A stretch of 64,000 nt of DNA from Ruficoccus sp. ZRK36. Its GTDB lineage: Bacteria > Verrucomicrobiota > Verrucomicrobiia > Opitutales > Cerasicoccaceae. Below, one piece after another: positions 3,712-45,352 of this stretch. The notes under the pieces were generated by a model. It searched no databases. It worked only from the letters and a program-made list of their open reading frames with translations, and was not told the origin of the DNA. The stretch's first letter is position 1; each line of letters opens with the position of its first letter. The stretch is taken from NCBI RefSeq assembly GCF_019603315.1, contig NZ_CP080649.1:3482176-3546175 (forward strand). The letters run 5' to 3'. Position numbers and translations under genes: made by a program.

Positions 3712-3717
3712 GTTTTT

Positions 3718-4075
3718 ATGGGGGCTACGCGCCCCCAAACCCCGCGGCAGCCGAGGGCTGCACTTTCGATGCTGCGCATCGTATCAGCGATTTCCTAAAC
3801 CAGCTCAGCTGGTTTAGGAAATCGCTGAACAAAGCATCAAAACTGGGCCGTCCCATTATGGACACTATTCGCTACCGTAGGATAGCGTCCGCTTATGGCA
3901 TTTCAGGAGAAAATGCCAGGGGTGATCTGATGGCGAGGCCGTGTCAGGGAAGGTTTCAATGTCGGTCTGTCGTTTGGTGGAGCCCGGACGACGGACCGAA
4001 AGTGCAGCCCTCTGCTGCCGCGGGTCCGGGGTGCGTAGGCCCGGTGCGGGGCGTGGGGGCGCGCAGCCCCCACAC
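3718..4075. repeat. Palindrome-rich dispersed element, copy 1
   Basis: Fills the whole gap between the convergent dnaE and P-type ATPase genes. It is a chain of hairpins: a GGGGGC/GCCCCC hairpin at 3720, GCAGCC/GGCTGC, CGATGC/GCATCG, then a 43-bp palindrome at 3785-3827 (two perfect 21-nt arms around one central base), CGCTA/TAGCG, and an 8-bp stem at 3896-3918 with loop CAGGAGA. Its ends are inverted copies of each other: 3742-3768 pairs with 3997-4023 with one mismatch, and both ends carry a GGGGGCnnGC-type hairpin. Copy 2 lies at 45104-45352 in the opposite orientation. No protein is encoded; short frames here are not credible. A REP/BIME-like or MITE-like element with a terminator role is the simplest reading (inference). 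Confidence 0.85.
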
Positions 4076-4091
4076 AACAACTTGACGGCGC

Positions 4092-45103: not shown

Positions 45104-45352
45104 TAGGGCTGCGGCAGGACAGAGTCCTGCACCCGTGATCCTCCGGATCACTGATGGCATATTCAGGAGAGAATGCCACAAACAGACAGCACCTCATCTT
45201 CATGGTTTACCCCCAAAAGCGGCGGCACCCGGTTTTAATGCTTTGCTCAGCGATTACTGAAACCTGCTAAGCTGGTTTCAGTAATCGCTGACACGATGCG
45301 CAGCATCGAAAGTGCAGCCTTCGGCTGCCGCGGGAGTGGGGCGCGTAGCCCC
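45104..45352. repeat. Palindrome-rich dispersed element, copy 2
   Basis: Inverted relative to copy 1 at 3718-4075 and again between two convergent genes. Read on the plus strand: GCAGGAC/GTCCTGC hairpin (45114-45130), GTGATCC/GGATCAC (45135-45151), TGGCAT...ATGCCA hairpin (45155-45178) with the same CAGGAGA loop, a 43-bp palindrome at 45248-45290 (21-nt arms, one mismatch), CGATGC/GCATCG, GCAGCC/GGCTGC and GGGGC/GCCCC. Relative to copy 1 the TGGCAT hairpin loop is flipped. The outer palindrome arms differ from copy 1 by three paired changes that keep base-pairing. There is only one end module, so this copy may be truncated on its left. Confidence 0.85.

What the first reader, a model, noticed from the sequence alone, without database searches (positions are those of the whole stretch)
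3718..4075. Palindromic element with compensated stem changes, copy 1 compared with copy 2 at 45104-45352
Two related hairpin-chain elements lie 41 kb apart in opposite orientation. Each fills a gap between convergent genes and abuts a stop codon within 15 bp. Their 43-bp palindromes (3785-3827 and 45248-45290) share outer and inner arm sequence, but at three positions both arms differ in a paired way (T-A to A-T, C-G to T-A, T-A to G-C). This suggests selection or copying that maintains the fold. It could be a new REP/BIME-like family, a MITE with 27-bp inverted ends, or a paired terminator/RNA element.
Basis: seen in the sequence. Interest (0 to 1): 0.75.

Follow-up and report, generated by a model that had tools for sequence, protein, structure and literature searches.

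The report
Dispersed hairpin repeats with matched stems
A bacterium of the Verrucomicrobiota carries dozens of copies of a short, hairpin-rich DNA repeat behind its genes, and in one long hairpin the two arms keep changing together in a way that fits DNA copying one arm onto the other better than selection on an RNA.

Summary
The two window elements belong to a family with at least 48 near-full copies in this 3.76 Mb genome (Puniceicoccaceae-like Verrucomicrobiota) and many in three congeners; 3 of 6 sampled genomes of other genera of the family give weak matches only. Each copy is a chain of three short hairpins (H1-H3), a palindrome of usually 21 bp with a 3-nt loop (H4) and a conserved tail. 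By my own gene of 48 copies sit between convergent genes (12 of 91 gaps without a copy), usually with H1 about 0-20 nt behind a stop codon. In 13 of 68 congener copies, and 0 of 48 own copies, the chain lies inside a ~208-bp MITE whose ends match an IS630-family element; no such transposase was found in the own genome. H4 differs in all 48 own copies yet stays paired: in 35 aligned copies 116 cells change on both sides, 1 on one side; over 116 copies G.T (6) is no commoner than A.C (13). Between copies with like arms the loop is inverted almost as often as unchanged (24 against 31 pairs). This fits palindrome template switching in DNA. An intrinsic terminator and a RAYT-driven REP are not supported. 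How the own-genome copies spread, and any host function, remain open.

The parts
3713..3848 (+). copy 1, core chain: T-run (3713-3717), H1, H2, H3, H4, tail
   Evidence: match to model R1 at 124.9 bits over the part from H2 to the tail; sequence read directly
3720..3736 (+). copy 1 H1 hairpin (loop TACGC)
   Evidence: sequence
3747..3761 (+). copy 1 H2 hairpin, 6 bp, 3-nt loop
   Evidence: helix 1
3767..3781 (+). copy 1 H3 hairpin CGATGC-TGC-GCATCG, hardly varying between copies
   Evidence: helix 2
3784..3828 (+). copy 1 H4 palindrome, 21 bp, 3-nt loop
3829..3848 (+). copy 1 conserved tail (..AAGCATCAAAACTGGG)
   Evidence: alignment
3997..4077 (-). copy 1 right half: H2 and H1 type modules in inverted orientation, making a composite element
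   Evidence: arms 3997-4035 and 4046-4077; a probe for such right halves matched 10 of 48 G000 and 10 of 36 G001 copies, of which two G000 rows (L013, L024) look like chance
45229..45352 (-). copy 2, core chain from H1 to tail
   Evidence: match to R1 at 126.3 bits (contig place 3527402-3527510)
45338..45352 (-). copy 2 H1 hairpin
45314..45328 (-). copy 2 H2 hairpin
45294..45308 (-). copy 2 H3 hairpin
45247..45291 (-). copy 2 H4 palindrome, 21 bp with one A.A mismatch
45114..45178 (+). second hairpin chain of another module type on the side of the DsbH-like gene (GCAGGAC..GTCCTGC, GTGATCC..GGATCAC, GGCAT..ATGCC)
   Evidence: sequence; two of its words recur in other own-genome loci

Best explanation
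The element is a non-autonomous dispersed repeat of the REP/MITE kind: a chain of hairpins of about 135 nt, sometimes extended to a ~350-nt composite by an inverted second half, found chiefly where an insert does little harm, in gaps between convergent genes. Shown: it is multi-copy and, as far as sampled, limited to one genus apart from weak matches; in congeners G002 and G003 (and one copy in G001) it is carried as a ~208-bp MITE with the ends of an IS630-family element, and five G002 copies are 98-100% alike at different places, so that form has moved recently. Inferred: an IS630-type transposase moves it in trans; in the window's genome, where neither such ends nor such a transposase were found, the copies are older or spread by another route. 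The matched changes in the long palindrome are best explained at the DNA level: in replication one arm serves as template for the other (template switching), which turns single mutations into paired ones, restores pairing and inverts the loop (mechanism inferred from the patterns). H1-H3 and the tail are kept by sequence instead, perhaps as binding sites (inferred).
For: Copies: 48 at 84 bits or more; matches in 3 of 3 congeners in numbers, weak matches in 3 of 6 same-family genomes of other genera, none in 18 genomes of other families of the order. MITE form: both ends found in 13 of 116 copies (9 of 22 G002, 3 of 10 G003, 1 of 36 G001, 0 of 48 G000), 206-211 bp; the same ends bound a 1.16-kb element with a DDE_3 (PF13358) transposase gene in G002. 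H4, corrected parse of 116 copies: 2423 pairs, 2377 Watson-Crick, 6 G.T, 13 A.C, 27 other; 92 of 116 perfect; all 48 own sequences distinct (the first parse, misplaced two copies and gave 2430, 2358, 10, 20, 42 and 88). In 35 own copies 116 cells changed on both sides against 1 on one side, covariation 0.487 against 0.035-0.086 when slid. Loop: within-genome pairs with arms at least 90% alike (186 pairs, 107 copies): 31 same, 24 inverted, 3 reversed only, 1 complemented only (one search gave 33, 25, 2, 1 of 184); 7 of 10 arm clusters hold an inverted pair against 1 and 1 for the controls. G003 copies L232 and L236 carry the same imperfect palindrome in opposite orientation but for two bases of 45. 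Arm homogenisation and spacer inversion are known products of template switching (PMC8604942, passages; PMC8794818, abstract and passages). Context: 32 of 48 convergent against 12 of 91 gaps without a copy, Fisher p 3e-10.
Against: Template switching was not observed in time; it is read from patterns. Without the arm filter inverted loops exceed a column-shuffle null only mildly (75 against 58.6, sd 7.2; 43 of 2000 shuffles as high; 27 of 2000), and there one other letter transform scores 74. A constraint acting on both DNA strands, or on RNAs from both strands, would also exclude G.T and A.C. Stem and loop lengths are more constant than copying alone would require. In the wider alignment A3, H4 shows 3 one-sided against 94 two-sided cells. 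No clean empty site was found and no mobiliser is known for the window's genome.
Confidence: 0.62

Rival explanations
1. A functional RNA structure in the 3' untranslated region (stability, processing or attenuation): the chain is transcribed from the upstream gene and selection keeps the fold.
For: Where a gene ends on the H1 side, the H1 region begins -6 to 20 nt from the stop in 33 of 36 own copies; H2 and H3 loops keep one orientation; strong folding; formal covariation is high.
Against: G.T pairs are no commoner than A.C (6 against 13), not what an RNA read from one strand would give; one-sided changes almost absent (1 of 735 cells); loop inversion has no reason under RNA selection.
Confidence: 0.15
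2. Selection on a DNA or two-strand structure (cruciform, protein-bound palindrome, two-way RNA barrier between convergent genes) keeps H4 perfect.
For: Convergent placement; strand-symmetric mismatches and constant stem and loop length (21 bp and 3 nt in 34 of 48 own and 20 of 22 G002 copies).
Against: Explains perfection but not the near equality of same and inverted loops; own copies outside convergent gaps are at least as well paired (0 of 333 pairs not Watson-Crick against 12 of 670).
Confidence: 0.13
3. Own-genome copies are simply decayed IS630 MITEs that have lost their ends.
For: Core shared with the MITE form; position behind stop codons; a T-run before H1, as in the MITE form, in 11 of 47 own copies.
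Against: 0 of 48 own copies keep either end while H3 stays nearly invariant; CTAG at the stop in 4 of 34 own copies against 7 of 15 in G002 and 4 of 6 in G003.
Confidence: 0.2
4. REP/BIME family moved by a REP-associated tyrosine transposase (RAYT).
For: Palindromes, inverted pairing of modules, convergent placement; Opitutus terrae, a verrucomicrobium, is reported rich in GTAG REPs (PMC3733652, passages).
Against: No Y1_Tnp match in G000, G002 or G003; G001 has 4 matches whose neighbourhood I did not examine; no GTAG tag seen in the alignments; stems far longer than the 8-9 bp of CGTC REPs.
Confidence: 0.05
5. Bidirectional intrinsic terminator.
For: Hairpins between convergent genes.
Against: No terminator-like site in either window element; a run of 4 or more T behind H4 in 0 of 47 own copies on either strand, behind H1 in 0 of 47 forward and 2 of 47 reverse (one of 48 copies could not be placed).
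Confidence: 0.03

Closest known systems
RUP of Streptococcus pneumoniae (ends like IS630-Spn1; PMC3049150, passages)
   Same: Small non-coding repeat with ends of an IS630-family element; over-represented between convergent genes
   Different: RUP is described as a simple 107-bp repeat; here a chain of four hairpins with a variable but matched palindrome, and most copies lack the ends
BOX elements of S. pneumoniae (PMC3049150, passages)
   Same: Modular, structured, dispersed, judged probably parasitic
   Different: BOX is built of boxA, B and C; here the modules are single hairpins and an inverted second half; no direct sequence comparison with BOX was made
GTAG/CGTC REPs and BIMEs (PMC3733652, abstract, section 6 and passages; PMC8266576, passages)
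   Same: Palindromes behind genes, often in inverted pairs, in convergent gaps
   Different: CGTC stems of 8-9 bp against 21 bp; no GTAG tag; no Y1 transposase found in the own genome; G.T pairing, which that paper takes as a sign of transcription, is rare here
Inverted repeats corrected by template switching (PMC8794818, abstract and passages; PMC8604942, passages)
   Same: Compensated double changes, homogenised arms, loop or spacer inversion
   Different: Described there in rRNA and microRNA genes and in yeast coding genes; here in over a hundred copies of one dispersed bacterial repeat

Membership tests
MITE of the IS630 family (form in G002/G003) | terminal inverted repeats shared with an autonomous IS | tested here: met
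   13 of 116 copies have both ends by a fuzzy probe; same ends on an element with an open PF13358 transposase gene
MITE of the IS630 family (form in G002/G003) | TA duplication within CTAG (target preference recalled, from no call) | tested here: inconclusive
   CTAG at the left end in 9 of 13, at the right end in 9 of 13, at both in 7 of 13 (counted, whose probe contained TA); no empty site seen
MITE of the IS630 family (own-genome copies) | terminal inverted repeats of that family | tested here: not met
   0 of 48
MITE of the IS630 family (own-genome copies) | partner transposase in the genome | tested here: not met
   0 matches for the protein and for PF13358 in G000; completeness estimate 98.59%
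REP (GTAG or CGTC) | GTAG or CGTC tag beside a short stem | tested here: not met
   alignments; TGTC or CGTC before H4 occurs, but the TC is part of the 21-bp stem
REP (GTAG or CGTC) | RAYT (Y1_Tnp) in the genome (for GTAG REPs) | tested here: not met
   0 in G000, 0 in G002 and G003, 4 in G001
Intrinsic terminator | hairpin followed by a T-run | tested here: not met
Known structured RNA family (Rfam 15) | match at the gathering score | tested here: not met
   0 matches in the window
Inverted repeat maintained by template switching | spacer inversion between copies with like arms | tested here: met
Inverted repeat maintained by template switching | double change arising in one event | not testable with these tools
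   needs mutation accumulation or a strain series

The most novel reading that the evidence does not exclude
H4 is rewritten as part of the element's life cycle: an enzyme that recognises the near-invariant H1-H3 and tail makes or flips the palindrome at each copying event (for example self-primed synthesis from a hairpin end), so that every new copy gets a perfectly matched, freely inverted stem. The family would then be a new kind of hairpin-copying mobile element, and a case of strong covariation without RNA function.
Probability: 0.12. Interest if true: 0.85.

Novelty: new variant of a known kind. Interest (0 to 1): 0.55.

Why it matters
Covariation of stem positions is treated as the best sequence evidence for a functional RNA. 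Here is a bacterial repeat that passes such a test with ease, while the lack of G.U steps and the inverted loops point to DNA copying. With over a hundred copies in four genomes it offers a natural data set in which template switching and selection can be told apart. It also shows one hairpin chain with and without IS630-type ends in sister species, which helps to ask how MITEs gain and lose their carriers.

Tried and rejected
Intrinsic terminator, RAYT-driven REP and Rfam families were tested and not supported. Looking for an empty site of copy 1 failed: dnaE and the ATPase gene lie about 2.1 kb apart in G001 and far apart in G002. At cysH, G003 has a MITE copy in the opposite sense, and by eye I saw none in the 500-base stretches read behind cysH in G001 and G002. 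The G002 copy L222 gave no clean empty site either. Sites with both neighbours shared were few: 5 of 48 own copies against the 36 sampled G001 copies (3 same, 2 opposite sense), 1 against 22 G002 copies (opposite), and 1 between G001 and G002 (same); in the same-sense pairs H4 differs at several pairs, so vertical descent is not shown. The gene calls come from a crude codon-usage caller of my own that gave at least one gene in the window I hold to be on the wrong strand; the 12 own copies whose H1-side gene was called as pointing away were not checked by hand. Papers: the searches showed me no paper on this family; they cover only this open library.

Dropped rows and biases: A2 used 36 of the 49 motif hits, A3 31 of those 36, A4 the 35 of 48 own copies that parsed as 21 bp with a 3-nt loop (this favours pairing). 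The first H4 parse was anchored on H3 and misplaced two copies (L012, L241; found); the re-parse searches for the best stem and trims unpaired outer ends in five copies, which favours pairing. A difference in pairing between convergent and other gaps suggested vanished on the re-parse. The loop test used 107 of 116 copies. The few H1 loops that seemed inverted came from other hairpins picked by the script.

Full report
What is there. The window is part of a 3.76 Mb genome whose DnaE is closest to those of Puniceicoccaceae and other Opitutae/Opitutia records of the Verrucomicrobiota. Copy 1 lies between dnaE and a P-type H+-ATPase gene, copy 2 between a DsbH-like gene and cysH. Each is a chain: H1, H2, the linker ACTTTC, H3 (CGATGC-NNN-GCATCG), the 45-nt palindrome H4, and a tail whose common form runs to about AAAACTGGGTCGCCACC. 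A run of T precedes H1 in copy 1, but 4 or more T in that place were found in only 11 of 47 own copies. Copy 1 ends in a second, inverted H2-H1 pair. A probe for such right halves matched 10 of 48 own and 10 of 36 G001 copies, two of the own ones probably by chance; several of these right halves carry another long, variable, matched stem.

Family and range. A DNA search gave 76 matches to copy 1 in the own genome, many of them parts of the same copies. A covariance model from 31 copies found 48 places at 84 bits or more, plus weaker or shorter ones and the opposite-strand matches of the same palindromes. Of 27 relatives, the 3 congeners have many matches; of 6 genomes of other genera in the family 3 have a few weak ones; 0 of 18 genomes of other families of the order have any. 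I took 36 copies of G001, 22 of G002 and 10 of G003 for comparison.

The MITE form. In G002 and G003 the chain often sits in a longer element. Both ends were found in 13 of 116 copies: 9 in G002, 3 in G003, 1 in G001, 0 in G000; lengths 206-211 bp. Five G002 copies are 98-100% identical over about 210 bp at different places, the query included. The same end sequence bounds a 1.16-kb element in G002 whose 359-residue protein matches DDE_3 (PF13358, 6e-22); the label IS630 and its TA/CTAG target are recalled. Stop codons beside H1 are TAG in 11 of 15 (G002) and 6 of 6 (G003), with CTAG in 7 of 15 and 4 of 6, against 13 of 34 and 4 of 34 in G000. G000 and G003 have no PF13358 match, so in G003 too the partner was not found.

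Placement. By my own crude gene caller, 32 of 48 own copies lie between convergent genes, 15 in tandem and 1 in divergent gaps; of 91 gaps without a full copy 12 are convergent. Where a gene ends on the H1 side (36 of 48), the distance from its stop to a fixed point at the start of the H1 region is -6 to 20 in 33 of 36. The same bias is known for small repeats and IS elements in S. pneumoniae, where it is read as tolerance of insertion (PMC3049150, passages).

The palindrome. H4 was parsed in all 116 copies. The corrected parse gives 2423 pairs: 2377 Watson-Crick, 6 G.T, 13 A.C (two-sided p 0.17), 27 other; 92 of 116 copies perfect; 48 of 48 own sequences distinct; 21 bp with a 3-nt loop in 34 of 48, 23 of 36, 20 of 22 and 4 of 10. 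The first parse misplaced two copies; its figures were 2430, 2358, 10, 20, 42 and 88. In 35 own copies 16 of 21 pairs change on both sides; 116 cells are changed on both sides and 1 on one side; 99.3% of cells pair, against 22-44% when slid. On the wider alignment A3, H4 has 94 two-sided and 3 one-sided cells, H3 hardly varies and H2 varies mainly in one pair. The short H2 is less perfect (635 of 678 pairs Watson-Crick in 113 copies). G.U tolerance, expected if an RNA from one strand were selected, is missing.

The loop. If the palindrome is copied or flipped as DNA, its loop should appear inverted. Among within-genome pairs with arms at least 90% alike (186 pairs; 107 of 116 copies used) the loop is the same in 31, inverted in 24, reversed only in 3, complemented only in 1 (before correction: 33, 25, 2, 1 of 184). 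Of 144 letter-and-order transforms, reverse complement ranks second only to identity at all cut-offs; at 90% the next scores 16. Seven of 10 arm clusters hold an inverted pair, against 1 for each control; at 95%, 7 of 13 against 1 and 1. Without the arm filter the excess is mild (75 against 58.6, sd 7.2, 43 of 2000 shuffles as high) and another transform reaches 74. H2 and H3 loops show almost no inversion (1 and 0 matches), and the 3 matches for H1 there came from other hairpins picked by the script. G003 holds both paired states (A-T and T-A) and both mismatched states at one stem position, in copies L231, L234, L237, L232 and L236; L232 and L236 are inverted forms of each other but for two bases of 45.

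Reading. Template switching between arms homogenises them and inverts spacers; in yeast, spacer inversions were seen only with arms over 9 bp (PMC8604942, passages), and the process can make compensatory changes in RNA stems (PMC8794818, abstract and passages). The long H4 fits; the 6-bp H2 and H3 do not invert. What keeps H1-H3 and the tail constant, and what spread the own-genome copies, is not known.

Noticed in passing
window 45114-45178; L012, L026, L027, L190 downstream of the element: A second chain of hairpins (GCAGGAC..GTCCTGC, GTGATCC..GGATCAC, GGCATTTTC..GAAAATGCC) recurs at the other side of several convergent gaps, with an order of hairpins like that of the family described.
   Followed up: partly
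L016, L028, L039, L205, L210 (right halves): A related module joins H1-H2-GCACTTTCG to a long matched stem with a core like GTGCGYAGCAC; its arms differ between copies and look paired.
   Followed up: no
own-genome loci, e.g. L004, L014, L028: Repeated words such as GGGGCAGCGAACGCAGTGAGCGATGGGGC..GCCCCAT and GTGCGGTCACGCAC form further hairpin modules in the same gaps.
   Followed up: no
L031:1528-1598: A copy in which most of H4 is missing, so that H3 is followed almost directly by the tail.
   Followed up: no
G002 C64:84932-86222 (L219, L310): A gene for a transposase 91% identical to the one described lies directly beside a MITE copy.
   Followed up: no
G001 C83, C138, C67: Four Y1 transposase matches in one congener only; whether the repeat lies near them was not examined.
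   Followed up: no
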